Shown here piece after piece: positions 28,419-57,242 of a DNA stretch of 64,000 nucleotides. Under the pieces are notes generated by a model. It searched no databases. It was not told where the DNA came from and worked only from the letters and a program-made list of their open reading frames with translations. The stretch's first letter is position 1. Every line of letters begins with the position of its first letter. Source of the stretch: Cinnamomum chago (lineage: Eukaryota; Streptophyta; Magnoliopsida; Laurales; Lauraceae); the NCBI GenBank assembly GCA_038049695.1, contig CP142453.1, forward strand, positions 113,724,001-113,788,000, in the 5' to 3' direction. The translations under genes were made by a program, and so were the position numbers.

Positions 28419-28926
28419 GGGAGAATTTCAAAACAGTCCTTAAGTTTCAGCCTTCTTTCAAAAAAGGACACAAGTTTCAAAACTTTTCAAATTAGTCCCT
28501 AAGTTTTTCAGGAAGTTTTCAATTGAGGACATCCATCTATTTAAAGTTATTTTTCGGCAACTTTATTCCCATTTTCTTTTTAAATACCCAAATTATCCTT
28601 TATTGTAATAAAACTCTCCTTCGCTTCGTCTATGTTCTCCTCGTTTCCCTCGCCGGTGTCCTCACGGTGATCAAGAACACCCGGTATTCCTATAGTGATT
28701 GGCTGCATGTAATGGTTGCCGAAACCATGTCATGACTTTAAATGAAGGATAATTTGGGTATTTTTAAGATACTGAGAGAAAAAGTCACCAGAAAATACCT
28801 TTAAATGGGCGGATGTCCTTAGTTGAAAATTTACTGGAAAGCTTAGAGACTAATTTGAAAAGTTTTAAAAGTTTTGTCATTTTTTGAAATAAGGTAAAAA
28901 CTTAAGGCCATATTTGAAATTTTTCC
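28419..28926. mobile_element. Mutator-type MITE with long terminal inverted repeats (508 bp)
   Basis: The two ends are inverted copies over about 185 bases each: from GGGAGAATTTCAAA on the left, matched by TTTGAAATTTTTCC on the right, through ACTTTTCAAATTAGT to ATACCCAAATTATCC. Flanks TTACCAAAA (28410-28418) and AAACCAAAA (28927-28935) are a 9-bp repeat with 7 matches, as expected for an old Mutator-like insertion. No coding capacity. Confidence 0.8.
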
Positions 28927-44100: not shown

Positions 44101-47100
44101 TGCTGCAAAGTTTCTCCTGAAAAGTTTCATTAGACATAAAAAATAAGAGAAGGTTGGTGCAAAAAGTAGTTTAGGGGAATAATTTTCTTCAACAATCAAG
44201 CTACTCCAAAAATGCCGGACTGTGACATGCAAGGTCTCAACAAATGAGAAATCAATAAGGGAGAAACCTCAGTTAAAGCACTCGTGTTCTGAAAACAGAA
44301 CTGATAATTTACTGGAACCAAGTCTGTATAGTGGCTGAAATCTTCCATGCACACCAAATCAGATATTACAAGTGCAGAATAAACATTTCATGAGTCTAAG
44401 GGTGAATATATTATACATATATAAATAACTATTAGGAAGAGAGCATGGCTCAAAATCAGTCACAGTCGCCATCATGATCGACCTTGAAAACTGTTATGAC
44501 GCAGCATCGCGTCGCGGTTTGCAGACATCTCGCGGTCCATCACAGTGCGAATTTTTTTTTATCCCAAAAAATCTGAGAAATATCCAAAAATTCTAGAATA
44601 TTATAATATGCTAGAAAATAATATTTTTTTCCATTAGTACACACTTTAAAGTAAAATATCAGTCCCCCAAGTCATAACATCCTATGTCGTTGTCTTATCT
44701 AAAACTTGTAAAGTCTATTCTGAATTAAATAAATTTACAAGTATATAATAAAATAATTTGAAATATCACAAATTTTACAAAATGCAACCATGATTTTGAA
44801 CTAACCATTACTATTAGTATTAAACACTTAAAAGTCAAGAAACAAGTAATAGTAGTGTAATACTCAATTACTCAACCATCAAGTAAGCTGACAATGAATT
44901 TCTACTTTCAAGTAGCATTTCTTGGAGGGTAATACTGAGAATCAAACTCCTGTGTTGCACTTTCGTAGTGCCACAGGGGGTATTGTGGTTGAGGAGGGCA
45001 GAAGCATTCATATGAGAATTCACCAAAATTTGGCAAATCATTTGAGTTTGAGGGGTGCTACTTGGACCGAATGGGGGACCGGGCCATGGTTCGGTCCCCC
45101 ATTCGGTCCAAGTAGACTTAATGTTTGAGTTTTGGTGAAAAGAGAGGCTAGGGAAGCTATAGCACCGTCTCAAGAAGCTCCACAGATGGTTTGGGGAAGA
45201 AAGAAAGGGCAAGAAAGTACAAAAACAAAAAAAAACATAGTCGGCCGATATTTTGACCATTTTGTCGGGGTCATTATGACCGTTATATTGAAAATATTGG
45301 CAATATGGACTGTTATTTTCACTTCTTTTTTTTATAACGGAACCGTTATGACCTTTATATTTAAAATATCGTAAGAGTCATTTTTTAAAACCATGGATGA
45401 GAGTCAGACAAGTAAAGAAATCTACACTGGCATAAATGGAAATACCTGACCCAAAACCAAAATAACATTCGTATTGAATGCCTCAATTGCATGAAGAAGC
45501 AACTGCAACCAAAATGTAAAGAAAGAAACAATAAATATCTTGCCCATGTCATTTCTATTAAGCAAAGGAAAACAACAAGTATCCAAAATTATGGACTTAA
45601 ATGGAATGTGTTTTTGCAGGAAGATAGACATTGCACATCGCAAAGCATAGGACTGTATGTGTGTGCATTTTGCACACAAACAATTTCCAGTGAAAACTGT
45701 ACCAATGTCTAGAAGTTAGGAGCACACACATGGGGGTCACCTATGATCATTCCAAACCCATCACACTCGCCTACTCCCATGAATTAGCAGATCTAAAATT
45801 GTCGCCCATCCTGCGGAGCAACCTTAAATGTTGGCACAAAAATCCACTTCATCTAAGGATAGAAATTGCTAAATTTCTCAGTCCCATAACCTGACTTAGG
45901 AGGCGATCCAGCCAACTGACCATGCCTGACCTGATCCACTACTGATCCTGCACAATTATATTTTTGAACTCATGCTAAATTTTAGAAAAATGAAGTTGAT
46001 AGTTGCATATTAATGAATCTTCAACTTAATCACGTTATCATTTTCTGATCAACATGAGGTTGTATATTGATGAATATCAAATATTTAATATATATATATA
46101 TATAGCTCAGATCCCACAGGTCAGATGAACATGGACTTGGAGCCAATTTGACATTTCATCAGACCCCACACTCTACACCCAGATCCAACCCGAAAGAGCT
46201 AAAAGATTGGCCCAGAACTGAGTACGAGGTTAAGCCAGGTCCAACAGATCATCAAGCCAACCTGACCCATTGGAAGCTCTAATCAAATGTTGAACATAAT
46301 TCCTCAAATGAGTTTTTAATAAAACATTCGAAAAGTACCTCATAGCCAACACCTTCTACCCAACCCATTGTGTTGATAACCATGCCAGCAGCTCGAGCTT
46401 CAGCATTACCAGCAAATTGTCTCTCAAGGGTTCGAGCAAGCTCCTTCACAAGCACTTTGTACAAATCTGCATTGGCACTGTGAAATTTTAAATTTAGAAA
46501 TGCTTCTCAAAACCTATAAATTAAAAGAAACTAGACTTGGATATACACTAATTCTAAACAGTCTAAACAAAAGGGTGGAATCAAAACATTTAAGGTTGGG
46601 TGTTATCACTTATTGCGCTTTTCACACCCATTTCCATGCAGCCAAATGTCCATTGTGGCATTTATACATAGCATGACACCAGTAACCAAGTCTTTTCCAA
46701 CAGCTTATTTGTTTCATAACCTGGCCCGAACCCATTACTATGCTACCATAAACTTCAAAATGGGTACCTTCATCTGACGTTCGAAAGCTTTAAATAAAAA
46801 GGTCGTACCAGGCATGCACCCAATGAATCACCAAGGTAACATAATAGCTTGAGGACTAGAGGCCTCAGGCCCTCAGCACTAGACAAGAGCATCTACAGTG
46901 GGCATGTATCTAATCTTCATGATGCCTGCCACCTTAGGACACGCAGCCACTAGGATACCATTTTAATTTCCATTTGAGGAAGAATGGCAAATCCAAACAT
47001 ATAGCCATTAAATGAAGAGAAACAATGATTCAGGGTTAATTAGGTTGTATGTTACTGAAATAGAACGAAAACAGTTACCTTGGCGTCGTGTGCCCAAAGA

Positions 47101-49154
47101 AATAGACAAGGGGCATTTCAAGTGGAATTCCTTCCACTGGATCAATTGGCATTTCAATTGGAGTCGCAGCAATACATCCGGGAATTGTTATGGATCCTTG
47201 ACCAATGTCCAAATCAACAAAAGTAGGCTTCCAACTTTGTTTAGATGCCCAGCTGAGAAGCATCGTTGACAAGCTGCTTTTTCCAGAGTCAGTTGGCCCT
47301 ACGACGATCACCCTGGGTCCCTGAACCATAGCAAGAGATTCAGAACAAAATGCAGAACTACAAACAAGAGATTGTAGAGGACCTTGTCCTGCACGTACAG
47401 GGCATGTGGTCAGGTGTCACTTCCCCCTCAGTTTAGGCTTCCACCTCAACTGAGTATTTTTACCAGTTGGACCCAAAAACATCAATTTGAATGAGCCATT
47501 ATCATTCCAAAGTACAGCTTCATTCCTAGAAGACCTTTTTCCCTTTCATCAACAATGCAGCTAACAAATCTTATACAAGAAGCCAATAAATTCAACAGAG
47601 GATAAATATATGGCATTAGAAATTTATGAGTGATATAAAACTAATTTGTCAAGATACTAAAGACATCAAAAAAACCACCTGAGAAGAATCTGCGCCACCA
47701 GCAGAGGACCCTTTAGCAAAAGCCCTTCTTGCATTCAATACAGCATGTACGTTCACATAGCTCACCATTGGTGTCTAAATATAGAACAAGACATGCATTA
47801 TTTAGGACAGAAGCCAATTTAAAAGCAAATCTATCATGCATAAAAAGGAAGTAGTGTCAAACACAACTGTGAGTCATTAGAGATACAAAGGAAAGATGTA
47901 GCTTACCTCATCAGCAACATATTCTACTTCACTAGGACCATTTACTTCAATTGTGGCACCATTCCAAGTAAAAACCTGATATAAGTGATAGAGTGAACGT
48001 TGGGTTGTCAGGCCCAACCTGTTGTATGTTGAAATAGTCAACCATTTAAACCAAATCACACCCATTCAAATATTGTATTCCCTATAGCTACAACAGCATA
48101 CACCGTATATCCATTCAAATATTGTATTCCCTAGTCTATAGGGAATACAATATTTGAATGGGTGTGATTTGTAACATACAACAGGTTGGGCCTGACAAAC
48201 CAACGTTCACTCTATCAATAAGCCAGTGATTTCATATCAGAACTATATCCACAAGAGGGCATGTATCAGATCAAAATGTTAATGCTGACTGAACGAAGCT
48301 CACTGTTTATGATCTTAAGGAAAACATTTGCATTTTTTAAAATGGTAAAGAATCTATTAAGCTAAAGCTCAAATAATATCAAACATAAGCCAAAGCCAAA
48401 GCCAAAGCCAGCAGTGTAATGATCAAAATTCAAAACAAGCAATGGTGTTAGGAGAGGTTTGTGCTTATTCAGAAGCCAAAGCCAGGTATCAACTTAATAT
48501 GATATGAATGTAGTAGGACAGTTTGCACATTCTCATTCATGTGGGTTACTCAAAACATATTCTATTTAGTTTGATAGAGTTCATAATCATTCAATTTTGT
48601 AATGGTTGCCATGCTCCCTCAATTGGTCTGGAAAGAAAGTAATCTGATACAGAGACTCTCTGCTTTAGAGAGCCTCATTTAATTAATGTCTCTCCACAAT
48701 CCCCATCCAATACAGTTAACAATTTAGGGTTTTGTTCAGAACAAACAAACACACAACCCTCCAACACATGTAATCTCATTTCTTTCACACACACTTGCTC
48801 AATAGAGGAAACCAAATGGACAAAGATCCAATCTTTCCGTTTTGCAATGCAGTTCCACTGCTTGTTGTATTGGGGATATGTGTCTAACCCTAACAGGAAA
48901 GGCATCAGCTAGAAACCAAATGCCTAATTCGAACGCGGATTATCTCTCGTTGCTTTTGAGAGTGGGGGGAGGGAGAGAAAGATTACAGCGAATTTGTGGC
49001 GAGGGGGGAAAGTGATCCAGTTCTCGGGAGGGAGTTCAGTGCCGAAGATCTCAGCAGCGCCTGAGTTGAGACGAAGGCGTATGGAAGTTTCCATGCCCAC
49101 TTCGATTCTCAGCTCGCTTTCCTTTCCCAACTCGAACCGTCGGCTTGTCGTCAT
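41138..49154 (-). CDS. CLP1: CLP1 homologue, mRNA 3'-end processing factor (424 aa, ten exons)
   Basis: Nuclear subunit of the pre-mRNA cleavage and polyadenylation machinery (CF II in animals, CF IA in yeast); animal CLP1 is also an RNA 5'-kinase. Exons on the minus strand: 49154-48987, 47975-47907, 47774-47679, 47320-47079, 46477-46339, 45502-45446, 44116-43982, 42432-42197, 41351-41307, 41225-41138. All borders are GT..AG and in phase, giving 424 aa plus TAA; human CLP1 is 425. The N-terminal beta domain spans residues 1 to about 110. The Walker A motif is GPTDSGKS (119-126) and the Walker-B-like stretch is FVDLDIGQGS (146-154). The C-terminal domain comes from exons 7-10 and ends GSLTWLES. 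No lesion is seen. Introns hold a retroposon (41372-41557), a hAT element with a 74-bp foldback insert, and a foldback duplication beside exon 2. Confidence 0.96.
41372..41557 (-). mobile_element. short retroposon (LINE 3' end) in CLP1 intron 9
   Basis: On the minus strand it ends in TTTAATACAATTTACCCATT then a short A run, a common plant LINE terminus. Flanked by AAAATTAACAGAA (41359-41371) and AAAATCAACAGAA (41558-41570), 12 of 13 matching. It lies 7 bases upstream of the exon 9 acceptor side (41351), close to where branch point and pyrimidine tract must act. The intron is counted here as the one between exons 8 and 9. Confidence 0.6.
44444..45395. mobile_element. second copy of the CATGGTTTAAA hAT-type family (952 bp), in a CLP1 intron
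   Basis: Ends CATGGCTCAAAATC and TTTTTTAAAACCATG, flanked by GAAGAGAG (44436-44443) and GATGAGAG (45396-45403), 7 of 8 matching. The left 200 bases align with the inverted right part of the element at 9801-10693 (shared CGCGGTC, GTGCGAATTTTTTTTTATCC, ATATCCAAAAA, TTCCATTAGTA). It lies between CLP1 exons 6 and 7 and contains the 74-bp foldback insert. Confidence 0.75.
45050..45123. mobile_element. 74-bp foldback insert with 9-bp target duplication, copy A
   Basis: Bounded by the direct repeat TTTGAGTTT (45041-45049 and 45124-45132). It holds a perfect inverted repeat with 24-bp arms (45058-45081 and 45092-45115) around a 10-base loop containing CCATGG. It aligns gaplessly with the 74-bp insert at 56940-57013. 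The extreme ends are not inverted repeats and there is no poly(A) tail, so the mechanism is unclear. Confidence 0.65.
47986..48217. repeat. foldback duplication in CLP1 intron 1 beside the exon 2 acceptor
   Basis: Left arm 47986-48087 and right arm 48136-48217 are near-identical inverted copies; the left carries about 20 extra bases in the middle. The 48-base loop contains a further direct copy of the arm end (CATTCAAATATTGTATTCCC at 48111-48130). The stem begins 10 bases from exon 2 (47975), so it overlaps the expected branch-point region. Confidence 0.85.
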
Positions 49155-49525
49155 CTCTCTCTTACAAACCCACAGGCCCCAACCAAGTGCCAAACAGGAG
49201 AACGGCGTAGGAGTGAACAATGAGTGAAATAAAACTTTAGAAGGCGGTGGAATTAAGCACACTGTTTGTGTGGAATCAATGCGTTTTGGTAATATGTTAT
49301 CGACCGTTCATGTTATTACTTATTAGGACGCAACCTCTTACAAAATAGATGCCCATGGGAGGATGGGTTTTGAAAACATGGTGTCGATCATGTTTTATTC
49401 CAAATTGTTGCCTGATTTTGTTTGTTTCTAACTTGGGTGCTTTTTGTTGTTGGAACGATGATGATGGTAATAATATTAGTAATGTTGTTTGTGGTTAGAT
49501 GGGGTCATGTAGATCTTATAATCAA

Positions 49526-52018
49526 AAGGATTTTATCAAAAGAAAAATCACTCTTTAATTGGCCAATGCACCAAAAATGTCATTTTAGCCAAACCTACAC
49601 CAAACTAGCCTTCCCGCCTAGAAATCCTTCTTTTTTTACCATTATTTTATAGGGTCAACGCCTACCCTTATTTTTATATTGAGGGTCGTTGTGGACCCAG
49701 ACTATAATGCACCAAGGTCGACGTCGACCCTGGCATTCACATCAATACATGTGTCACTATCAATCCTAACAATGTTAAGAAAATTTAAAGGTATTTCATA
49801 TCTAAATTTAAGAATCAGGGTTTGATTGAGGTACCACGTTCATTCATACAAGAATGATTTCGAGACATTTGATTTGCTATTATGGTGTCAAGGGGGTCAC
49901 AAGAATCCAAAGTGGAAGACAAATCTTAAAGACTAGTGCCTAAATTGCGGCCACAAGTTGGGCCCAAGAATAGGACATGTGACGAAAACATAACTTCTCT
50001 AATCCAAGCTGTAAGTGCAGAAATAATAATACTTACAAGATCAGGATGCCTCTTAGGACTTACTCAATGCATGGAGGAGATAGCTGCGACGACCTGAGCC
50101 TGAAAGAGGAGAAAGACAAAGGTCAGAGGACCCTGGCTATGGGCAGCGCAGGGCTCTCCGATGCTTAAGTCAGCAATGAATCGGAGAAGAAGAAGAAGAA
50201 GAAGAAAGACTGAGTGTCCCTGTGAGAATGCTTACCCCCTGCTCCCTTTGGCTCATGCCTTATATATGGGACAGTCTTGGGTGAATGCCAGTGGGCTTGG
50301 TGATGTGACCTGGGTCACATCAGCCCACAAAGTCATTAATGAAGGTCCATCATAGCCCACACTGCATTTAATGTGGGTCCGATCAGCCCACAATGCATTT
50401 AATGCCAGTCACATTGGGCCTGATCTTGCCCTGATCTGGTGGTAGCTGATGTCCCATCAGATCCCTTCCTTGGGCCTTGCCACGAGAGGGCCGTGGCTGT
50501 TAGCTGCAAGCGCAATACTGCATCGCCGAGCTCGCATTGCCGAGACTGGACGGTATGCGCGGCCGAACTGAATTCTGTTCGGCCGAAACCAGCGCGTAGT
50601 GCCGAGACCGAAGTGGATCGGATCATAGCCGAGATCAAGGGACGTGGTCCCCCAAACAGTAGCTAACCGAGCACACCCTAGCCGAGACCAAGAGAAACTG
50701 GTTCACTGAATGGGCCCCCACACACAAGCATTTCCAAACAGTTTCAACAGCCCAAACAATTTTGATCCCAGTTAAAAAAGTTCTCATTACCGTGATGTTA
50801 TTATACAAGAGCTTTAAGGCATGTACGAAGATATCATAAAGAGCTATCTCTCAACGATTTTCCTACAATCAAATATCACAACCCCAATTGATAGTGTCTC
50901 TCAAGCTCTAGACTCTAATATAGATTAGGCAAATATCCGAAAAAAACTATCATGCCACTCATGTAAGAACATACTAAAAGACATGAATTAGCACATAAGG
51001 ACATATTTTTAAAATCAAAACAATAAATATGAACTATGGCTGAAGTTAAGAACTCGTACAAACCAAAACATGCATAGAGATCCAAATAGCTCTCACCGCC
51101 TACATCTTGGGAATTACAAATGTTTTGTCCCAAAATTCAAGATTTCAACATAGATAAGACTATCGAGATCAAAATTCTTTAGTTGTCTTTGTCACTGTAC
51201 TTTGGAAGAGAGGATAACATTCTAGCGTGTCATGTCTACACTGGTTTTGTTATAAGCAGACACCTATGGATGCACAACAACGTTTTTCAAAACAATCATT
51301 TGTTTTGGGTCTATATGTAATATAAATATTTCAATAAACTAGAAAGGGTTAGGGTTAAAAGTGCTTTAGTTGAGAACCCACCTTTGCAGAGAAGCATGTC
51401 CAACAAGTGTTTCAGGTGCGGATTGATTTCCTTCGGGATGGGTAATGGATTATTAACAATCTGAACATATGTACAATTTTCATATAAAAGACTCTGTACC
51501 AAAAATATATATATATAAAGAAATAAAAGATGAAAAAATAAATAAAAAATGGATGGTGCTCTCTCGCAGCAGAGGTAGCACCATGTCCTAAGTATCCTGT
51601 AGTGTGTCCCCATGCTAGCTTACATAGGTTAAGACCCACTACAATAGCAAATCAAATGTCTTGAAACTGTTCATTAATGAATGAATGGAGTACCTCAATC
51701 AAACCCCAATTCTTAATTTTAAATATGAAGTACCTTTAAATCTTTTTGATACTGTTAGAGTCAATAGTGACGCAGGTATTAACATTATGCCTTGACAAAA
51801 TGTAAATGTCAAGGTCGACGTCGACCCTGGTGCATTATAGTCAAGGTCGATGGCGACCCTCCACATAGAAAATGAGGGTCTACATCGACCCACGAAAAAA
51901 TGATAAAAAAAAAAGAAGTGTTTTTGGGCGCGAATGCTAGTTTGATGTGGGTTTGGTTAAAGTGACCATTTTGGTGTAATGGCCACCTAAAGTTTTTTTT
52001 TTTTTTTGTAAAATGCTC
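49526..52018. mobile_element. MULE-like non-autonomous element with about 360-bp terminal inverted repeats
   Basis: The left 49526-49885 and right 51655-52018 are inverted copies over their whole length; shared landmarks include TGGCCA, AGGTCGACGTCGACC, TTTAAAGGTA and GGTTTGATTGAGGTAC. Flanks TATAATCAA (49517-49525) and TAAAATCAA (52019-52027) form a 9-bp repeat with 8 matches, as for Mutator-like elements. The 1.8-kb interior shows no transposase and carries a nested solo LTR. Confidence 0.85.
50010..50724 (-). mobile_element. solo LTR of a Ty3/gypsy-type retrotransposon (715 bp), nested in the MULE
   Basis: On the minus strand it runs from TGTGTGGGGGCCC to CTGCACTTACA (TG..CA ends) and is flanked by an exact 5-bp duplication CAAGC (50005-50009 and 50725-50729). 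Inside are a TATATAAGG promoter box and, downstream of it, TTGCTGACTTAAGCATCGGA, a phrase common in plant gypsy LTRs just after the transcription start. There is no internal retroelement sequence on either side, so it is a solo LTR left by recombination. Confidence 0.88.
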
Positions 52019-52027
52019 TAAAATCAA

Positions 52028-53367
52028 TCTAGTTTCTTATCATAATCTTTGAGGCATGGAAGGTATTAAAATGAAAAAGTATGAAGTGTCTATTTCTTAT
52101 TTACATGGAGTAAGTATCGGTTTCAATGGACTTTTTTTATTTTTTGCAATCTATACAAAAATCACCTTCATTTCTTTCTTTTTTTTATGTGTATGGATGG
52201 TTTGGATATAAATTATATAATTTAAAGTACGTGGTTGAAGAAACAGTGAAATGTGAATATGCCAATCCTAGGAGGAATGTGATTATGAAATGTATGCTTC
52301 AAGTGGATGTGTGCTCCATGTGGTTGTTTGAGGAGTAGTGAAGTGTAGAAAGAAGTTTAAGGTGGACGTGTGCTTCAAACGGATGTTTGCAGAGAATGCT
52401 AGAATGTGATTGTTAAAACCCAAATGTGAAATTTGGAATGTGATACATGAATATGAATGTAAATGTATTTTGAAATCTAAAGTGTAATTTTTTTAAACTT
52501 GTGACAATTATACATGTCGATGAGAGGGAATATCGTTGCTTAACGAAGAATTAGAGAGAGAGAGAGGGAATATCGTTGCTTAATGAAGAAGTAGAGAGTG
52601 AGAGAGAGAGAGAAGTGACGGGAGGGCCCACATTGTTTATATCAAGATTTGAGGGCCTTTTTTATTCTTTAGCGATTCTAAAATGACTTTTTAGGAAAAA
52701 ATGTCAATTTTTTTATGCATTTAATTTCTTCGCCATTTTATTGCAACGTGACGATGGCTGTGAATTAAGCATTTTATCTGCCGAGGTTGAGTGAGGAGGT
52801 TGTTCACCTGTTTGTGCCGTTTACTTGCTTCCTTCCCATCCATTTTATCATTGGATTCGTGTGAAATTATAATCGTAGTCAAGCTTCTTTCTATTGATTT
52901 ATTTTTTTAGAAAGATTCTGTTTATATATATATATATTATTAACACGAGCATTCTTCAATAGACTTTGGTCTTTGTACTTAAGTTAAAAAAAAAAAAAAA
53001 AAAAACTATGTCATTTGAGTTTCATGAAATCCTTTTTTTTTTTTTTTAATCTTAGGTGCTTGTTTTGTGCTTCTTCCTAGTGGTTTGTTGGCAACACACA
53101 AGGTTTCAGTTGAACATGCGCTCCTTTTGTAGGGTACATAGGCATTGAAAGTTTAATTTAGTTTAAGAGCATTGAAAGTTTAAACTAATTAGTATAAGTC
53201 ACAATTTTGTTCTATTCGATTTATGCTGTTTTTTTAGCTTGATTTTTCACGTTTTTGTTGACTAATTGTGCGGGGGATGGTAAATGAAATGAGTTGAACT
53301 CATTTTACAGTCATCTTGAATTTTATTAGGTTCAGTTTGACATCTCTTAAATTTACCTCTTATTGTC
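52028..53367. other. intergenic, no gene seen
   Basis: AT-rich. A short direct duplication (GAGGGAATATCGTTGCTTAA at 52525-52544 and 52565-52584, each near a GA tract) and A/T homopolymers near 52986-53006 and 53034-53048 are present. Confidence 0.5.
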
Positions 53368-56930: not shown

Positions 56931-56939
56931 TTTGTGCGT

Positions 56940-57013
56940 CAGTCCTGCTAGCAGGATCGACTGGGAGACCGACTCCTGACCCGGTCTCCCAGTCGGTCCA
57001 TTTAGCTTTTCTC
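56940..57013. mobile_element. 74-bp foldback insert with 9-bp target duplication, copy B
   Basis: Bounded by the exact direct repeat TTTGTGCGT (56931-56939 and 57014-57022). Hairpin arms lie at 56954-56971 and 56982-56999 with one mismatch and a 10-base loop, at the same internal positions (15-32 and 43-60) as in copy A. Just before it is a 14-bp palindrome TCCTGCTAGCAGGA (56943-56956). Confidence 0.65.
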
Positions 57014-57242
57014 TTTGTGCGTTTACGTGGATTTAGCAAACACCATTCAAGGACAGAAAATTTTAGGGGACCCATGTCATCAAATTAAATAAAAAAATGA
57101 AAATCCAACCAACTGATGGTTCAACTTCTTTTTTACTTTCTTCTATTTTTTTTAATAATACATCTATACTGTTTTAATTTCTGGGTTTTTTTTATTTTTT
57201 GTGACACTTTCTTAATAATAATATATATATATATAGAGAGAG

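What the first reader, a model, noticed from the sequence alone, without database searches (positions are those of the whole stretch)
45041..45132. 74-bp foldback insert, copy A: candidate undescribed miniature element
An insert of exactly 74 bp is bounded by an exact 9-bp direct repeat (TTTGAGTTT) and contains a perfect 24-bp-arm hairpin with a 10-base loop. A second insert of exactly 74 bp (56940-57013) aligns with it without gaps, has the hairpin at the same positions, and has its own, different 9-bp direct repeat also starting TTTG. Two independent insertions of equal length with duplicated targets indicate mobility. The ends are not inverted repeats, there is no poly(A) tail, and 74 bp is far below usual MITE sizes. 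Known 9-bp duplications belong to Mutator-type transposases, so a MULE-mobilised relic is one option; a template-switch or RNA-derived insert is another. Lengths, repeats and hairpins are seen directly; mobility is inferred.
Basis: partly seen in the sequence, partly recalled or inferred. Interest (0 to 1): 0.75.

Follow-up and report, generated by a model that had tools for sequence, protein, structure and literature searches.

The report
Tiny hairpin transposon family in plant
The 74-base insert is one copy of a family of very small hairpin-shaped jumping DNA elements scattered through what looks like a plant genome, an unusually small version of a known kind of mobile DNA rather than something wholly new.

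Summary
Copies A (45050-45123) and B (56940-57013), 74 bp each with different exact 9-bp flanking repeats, belong to an interspersed family in the window's own 1.06-Gb, plant-like genome. A 20-position end motif occurs 332 times exactly (reversed-pattern control 1). Of the first 30 listed, 28 close within 49-153 bp on a 9-bp direct repeat (24 exact; control 0.3%). A sits in a repeat whose other copies (40 scored of 204 candidates, 40 of 40) lack it. So mobility is shown for the family. The 74-bp size is explained: members of about 150 bp are nested foldbacks with two hairpins, and deleting between their short direct repeats gives 74-76 bp. Tips are asymmetric and lie outside the sub-terminal hairpin, as in the published Mutator/Foldback family Tm1. 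Best reading: a non-autonomous foldback MITE family, probably moved by a Mutator-like transposase; no partner element was found in a limited look. The TTTG bias fails (only A and B among 77 exact duplications). Whether 74-bp copies jump as such, or shrink after insertion, is undecided.

The parts
45041..45049 (.). copy A, left target-site duplication TTTGAGTTT
   Evidence: present once, with substitutions, in 6 aligned empty sites
45050..45123 (+). copy A, 74-bp element
   Evidence: with its duplications (92 bases) as query, 107 genome matches from 40 scored of 455 candidates
45050..45069 (+). copy A, left end motif GAGGGGTGCTACTTGGACCG (SAGNNNTGCTANNTGGACCG)
   Evidence: 332 exact sites genome-wide, control 1
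45058..45081 (+). copy A, 5' arm of the 24-bp perfect stem
45082..45091 (+). copy A, 10-nt loop
45092..45115 (+). copy A, 3' arm of the stem
45104..45123 (+). copy A, right end CGGTCCAAGTAGACTTAATG (asymmetric to the left end)
45124..45132 (.). copy A, right target-site duplication TTTGAGTTT
56931..56939 (.). copy B, left target-site duplication TTTGTGCGT
56940..57013 (+). copy B, 74-bp element of a diverged subfamily (tips CAGTCCTG and, read inwards, GAGAAAAG)
56947..57006 (+). copy B, hairpin (outer 5 pairs, 2x2 internal loop, 18 pairs, 10-nt loop)
57014..57022 (.). copy B, right target-site duplication TTTGTGCGT
   Evidence: 4 paralogous places cross the joined site
49800..49997 (-). empty-site paralogue, in this window, of another family copy (L086, 104 bp): 198 columns without a gap across the junction, 159 identical (80%)

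Best explanation
A non-autonomous, miniature foldback DNA transposon (MITE) family. Shown: copies have conserved, asymmetric tips (left [GC]AGNNNTG; right, read inwards, roughly [GC]NNAAAGT) just outside a sub-terminal hairpin. They sit in A+T-rich targets with a 9-bp duplication, and related sites without them exist. Shown: longer members (about 150 bp) carry two hairpins joined by a third palindrome, and this layout contains 10-11-bp direct repeats; deletion between them, done in silico, gives 74-76-bp single-hairpin elements with one or the other loop orientation, one of them identical to a natural copy. Inferred: a Mutator-like (MULE) transposase acting in trans binds the sub-terminal inverted repeats, cuts at the tips and makes the 9-bp duplication. 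Inferred: the 74-76-bp class arises repeatedly by hairpin-promoted deletion, before or after insertion, and stem arms stay matched because one arm can be copied from the other.
For: Family: 332 exact end motifs, control 1; 1013 at up to 1 mismatch, control 47. Boundaries: 28 of the first 30 listed exact sites (all on contig 1, chosen by the left tip alone) close on a 9-bp repeat (24 at 9/9, 4 at 8/9); left-flank words from further out reach 9/9 in 0.3% and 8/9 in 2.7% of 600 trials. Length: 22 of 24 exact cases are exactly 9, 2 extend by one base. Target A+T 81% against 63% in flanks. Empty sites: A, 40 of 40 scored (204 candidates) span the join, 6 of them aligned; B, 4 of the 4 hits that are not B's own flanks; L086, ungapped. 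Size class: 75 exact left-right pairs of 62-92 bp, control 0, 50 of 75 at 74-76 bp. Deletion: L070 (150 bp) gives 74 bp by either repeat pair, L044 and L063 give 75; L142 (114 bp) gives 76 bp identical to the natural L143. Several end-defined subfamilies hold both short and long members. Arms: 34 double-changed cells against 12.9 shuffled, 92.5% paired against 86.1%; within-copy arm identity 0.905 against 0.850 for opposite arms of different copies, 0 of 2000 permutations.
Against: No element with these ends and a transposase was seen. The end signature is absent within 1.5 kb of 30 MULE domains (one poor match to a looser signature in L111), which is a short reach and only 30 of 150 scored and 3015 candidate places. 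Two of 30 sampled end motifs had no right boundary (best 7/9 and 5/9; I read them as truncated). Short copies are not each other's nearest relatives more than chance in all 91 elements tested (1284 of 5000 shuffles as high) and only marginally in a 52-element subset (238 of 5000), so amplification of the 74-bp form as such is not shown. One of the five pairing measures does not stand out (further pair types 18 against 15.3, 60 of 500 shuffles as high).
Confidence: 0.8

Rival explanations
1. In-situ shrinkage only: all 74-76-bp copies inserted as ~150-bp (or longer) elements and lost one hairpin afterwards by slippage or recombination between the direct repeats; the 74-bp form itself is not mobile.
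For: In-silico deletion products have the right size and one matches a natural copy exactly; several subfamilies hold short and long forms; both loop orientations occur with the same ends (GAGCCCTG tips); short copies do not cluster in the full set; copies of 49 and 55 bp with intact duplications look like deletions.
Against: Some subfamilies are mostly short in the sample (GAGCCCTG / GAGGAAGT tips: 4 of 5 bounded members are 73-74 bp), and near-identical short copies sit at different targets (L059/L073 98.6%, L009/A 98.7%).
Confidence: 0.4
2. The 9-bp duplications come from a DDE transposase of another superfamily rather than a MULE.
For: No MULE with these ends was found in a limited look; the end signature was not compared with other transposon superfamilies.
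Against: MULE target duplications are 8-11 bp and several plant MULE groups are listed with 9 bp (PMC6446971, passages); Tm1, a Mutator/Foldback family, has the same layout of asymmetric tips, sub-terminal inverted repeats and 9-bp duplications (PMC3169594, abstract and passages).
Confidence: 0.2
3. Retroposed or template-switch inserts, i.e. RNA-derived hairpins with no transposase.
For: Strong hairpin as RNA.
Against: 9-bp duplication of nearly constant length; conserved tips on both sides in 93 bounded elements, though end shape was part of how these were picked; clean empty sites.
Confidence: 0.03

Closest known systems
Tm1 Mutator/Foldback family of root-knot nematodes (PMC3169594; abstract and passages seen)
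   Same: 9-bp target duplications (8-10 bp in 45 of 53 complete elements there); asymmetric short tips (motifs A1/A2) outside the inverted repeats; composite inverted repeats; mostly MITE-like members of variable length.
Plant foldback elements (SoFT, FARE, Hairpin, Tnr8): recalled; only reference-list titles for FARE, Tnr8 and 'Foldback transposable elements in plants' seen; FARE paper not held
   Same: Foldback structure in plants; 9-bp-class duplications (recalled).
Mutator-type MITEs of plants (PMC12550479, PMC12595863; passages seen)
   Same: Multicopy, A+T-rich target duplications within the 2-9 bp given for MITEs, inverted repeats.
   Different: MITEs are defined there by terminal inverted repeats next to the duplication; here the outer 8 nt are not inverted, and half-size copies consist of almost nothing but one hairpin.

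Membership tests
MITE (non-autonomous class II element) | multicopy, short, target-site duplication of fixed length | tested here: met
MITE (non-autonomous class II element) | terminal inverted repeats | tested here: inconclusive
   outer 8 nt match 1.9 of 8, next 12 nt 9.5 of 12 on average: sub-terminal rather than terminal
MITE (non-autonomous class II element) | empty sites with a single target copy | tested here: met
MITE (non-autonomous class II element) | same ends as an autonomous partner in the genome | tested here: inconclusive
Mutator/MULE superfamily | 8-11 bp target duplication | tested here: met
   9 bp, A+T-rich; range from PMC6446971 passages
Mutator/MULE superfamily | mobilised by a MULE transposase (PF10551) | not testable with these tools
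   MULE domains are abundant in the genome, but no link to these ends was seen
Foldback-type elements | internally repetitive inverted repeats that fold back | tested here: met
   150-bp members are nested palindromes with two internal hairpins and 10-11-bp direct repeats
SINE / retroposon | tail and variable-length duplications | tested here: not met
   duplication 9 bp in 22 of 24 exact cases; right ends are a conserved tip
Known structured RNA (Rfam) | match at gathering score | tested here: not met
   no match in the window

The most novel reading that the evidence does not exclude
The paired stem is a working part of the element: the transposase (or the transposition intermediate) recognises the folded sub-terminal hairpin, or copies one arm from the other, so arms change together between copies, and a single 74-bp hairpin with 8-nt tips is a complete substrate, one of the smallest mobile units of a eukaryotic cut-and-paste system.
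Probability: 0.2. Interest if true: 0.65.

Novelty: new variant of a known kind. Interest (0 to 1): 0.38.

Why it matters
It gives a well-bounded, high-copy series of natural size variants (49 to 189 bp, related tips, same 9-bp duplication), from which the smallest DNA that such a transposase accepts could be read. It shows a simple route by which foldback elements halve themselves to a near-fixed size. Tools that require inverted repeats at the very tips, or longer elements, may miss such families (inference), and near-perfect 24-bp hairpins are possible small-RNA sources (not tested here).

Tried and rejected

TTTG target bias: rejected; of 77 exact duplications only A's and B's own begin TTTG, plus one 8/9 case, L155.

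Known RNA family: none in the window at gathering score.

Parent or autonomous element: not found. 30 MULE loci (about 3.3 kb each) scanned with three signatures, no hit; a looser signature gave one poor hit in L111. L147 and L149, the two sampled end motifs without a right boundary, run into other sequence and look truncated.

In my notebook (entry 1) I wrote that L031 has the left-type end on both sides. That was wrong: one search shows one end of each type, in reverse orientation.

Other empty-site candidates: L150 against L140 (73%, gaps away from the junction) and L081 against window 28452-28622 (72%, a one-base gap near the junction) are weaker than L086.

Viral contigs scanned with a window protein, hoping to place the organism: no relative. 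No plant collection is held, so species and spread among plants are unknown. Paper searches for such a family (I saw listings) listed none that I recognised as this one; repeat libraries such as Repbase or P-MITE were not available, so 'undescribed' is not established. A genome count of the 127-157-bp class did not complete.

Full report
What was checked. Copy A occupies 45050-45123, 74 bp, between two exact copies of TTTGAGTTT; copy B occupies 56940-57013, 74 bp, between two exact copies of TTTGTGCGT. A has a perfect 24-bp stem with a 10-nt loop; B's stem is 18 pairs, a 2x2 internal loop and 5 pairs. They align without gaps at 48 of 74 positions. Both fold far better than shuffled sequence (z -11.3 and -6.6 on the + strand).

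Setting. The window lies in G000, contig 3, of a 1.06-Gb genome in 14 contigs. That it is a flowering plant is my reading from memory of the encoded proteins (small heat-shock protein-like and LOV/PAS-like frames); no call names the organism.

The family. With A as query the genome gave 107 matches from the 40 places scored of 455 candidates; with B, 65 matches from 40 scored of 60 candidates. The stem core occurs 285 times at up to 2 mismatches, with 0 for the pattern read backwards. The left tip plus stem start, SAGNNNTGCTANNTGGACCG, occurs 332 times exactly (control 1) and 1013 times at up to one mismatch (control 47). In the window only A and B are convincing members.

Boundaries. I took the first 30 listed of the 332 exact sites (all on contig 1), chosen by the left tip alone, and looked for the best 9-base match to the left flank 40-170 bases downstream. 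24 of 30 match 9/9, 4 match 8/9, 2 have none (best 7/9 and 5/9); the same search with flank words from 30-220 bases further out reaches 9/9 in 0.3% and 8/9 in 2.7% of 600 trials. 22 of the 24 exact duplications are exactly 9, two extend by one base. Elements are 49-153 bp in that sample; a wider look up to 1450 bases found no better boundary than 7/9 for the two misses. In this larger set a match of at least 8/9 and an end shape were required, so its share with duplications is not a test. Duplications in the 28 bounded sites are 81% A+T against 63% in the flanks.

Empty sites. A's flanks joined with one target copy match 40 of 40 scored places (204 candidates) at 84-88% identity, each spanning the join. 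Six of the 40 were aligned with the filled site and lack the insert plus one duplicated copy, apart from substitutions. B's joined flanks gave six hits: two are B's own flanks and four cross the join at 77-84% (not aligned letter by letter, and two of the four lie 28 kb apart with the same match, so they may be one duplicated site). A third member, L086, has an empty paralogue inside this very window (49800-49997, 198 columns, no gap, 80%). The duplicated TTTG start is no bias: among 77 exact duplications only A and B show it.

Anatomy. The outer 8 nt of the two ends differ (1.9 of 8 matching), while the next 12 nt match 9.5 of 12: asymmetric tips outside sub-terminal inverted repeats. The left tip in this set was partly selected for by the search; the right tip only by a loose A-rich criterion. 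Members of about 150 bp hold two hairpins joined by a third palindrome. In L070 (150 bp) deletion between either pair of 11-bp direct repeats leaves 74 bp, with opposite loop orientation; L044 and L063 leave 75 bp by the one pair that is exact there. The same operation on the 10-bp repeats of L142 (114 bp) gives the natural 76-bp element L143 letter for letter. Several end-defined subfamilies hold both short and long members. Genome-wide, 75 exact left-right pairs of 62-92 bp exist (control 0), 50 of 75 at 74-76 bp. So the striking equality of A and B follows from the repeat layout.

Does the 74-bp form jump? Not settled. Near-identical short copies sit at different targets (L059/L073, L009/A, L143/L156), but a nearest-relative test on the outer ends gives no clustering of short copies in all 91 elements tested (1284 of 5000 shuffles as high) and a marginal one in 52 (238 of 5000).

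Stem pairing. In 24 hand-chosen diverse single-hairpin copies, 92.5% of cells pair (shuffled 86.1%), with 34 double-changed cells (shuffled 12.9) and 9 pairs with a double change (shuffled 5.2, 1 of 500 as high); the number of further pair types does not stand out (60 of 500). In another set of 21 copies (19 near A, plus A and B; it shares members with the first), arms within a copy are more alike (0.905) than opposite arms of different copies (0.850; 0 of 2000 permutations). Related sequences can inflate such shuffles, so this is support for arm-to-arm copying or selection on pairing, not proof.

Mechanism and comparison. A near-constant 9-bp, A+T-rich duplication with conserved tips points to a cut-and-paste transposase (established knowledge of such enzymes). 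MULEs make 8-11 bp duplications, and plant MULE groups with 9 bp, some without terminal inverted repeats, are listed in PMC6446971 (passages). MULE domains abound in this genome (150 scored of 3015 candidates), but none of the 30 looked at carries these ends within 1.5 kb. The closest described architecture that I saw is Tm1, a Mutator/Foldback family with asymmetric 7-bp tips, sub-terminal inverted repeats and 9-bp duplications (PMC3169594, abstract and passages). I therefore call this a new, exceptionally small variant of the Mutator/Foldback MITE kind; membership in the Mutator superfamily itself is inferred.

Noticed in passing
window 47986-48217: Another foldback, with no evident likeness to this family: 65-nt inverted arms (86%) around a nested palindrome with 36-nt perfect arms (48052-48171); no exact flanking duplication of 7-10 bp was found in a quick scan.
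   Followed up: partly
window about 49510-52031: Inverted repeats of about 450 bases some 1.6 kb apart, looking like a long-inverted-repeat element; its left arm holds the empty-site paralogue of family copy L086.
   Followed up: partly
window 44980-45202: Copy A's host sequence is itself an interspersed repeat with 204 candidate copies (40 scored), of unidentified type.
   Followed up: partly
L092: A family copy (74 bp, duplication CTGTTTTTT) lies directly beside another family-like half hairpin, suggesting insertion next to or into another member.
   Followed up: no
G000:C3:89726038, 89736910, 89747782: Three end motifs at an exact 10,872-base spacing, suggesting a copy inside a large tandem duplication.
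   Followed up: no
L129 (G000:C1:8010282): A family member with a run of about 20 G in its stem.
   Followed up: no
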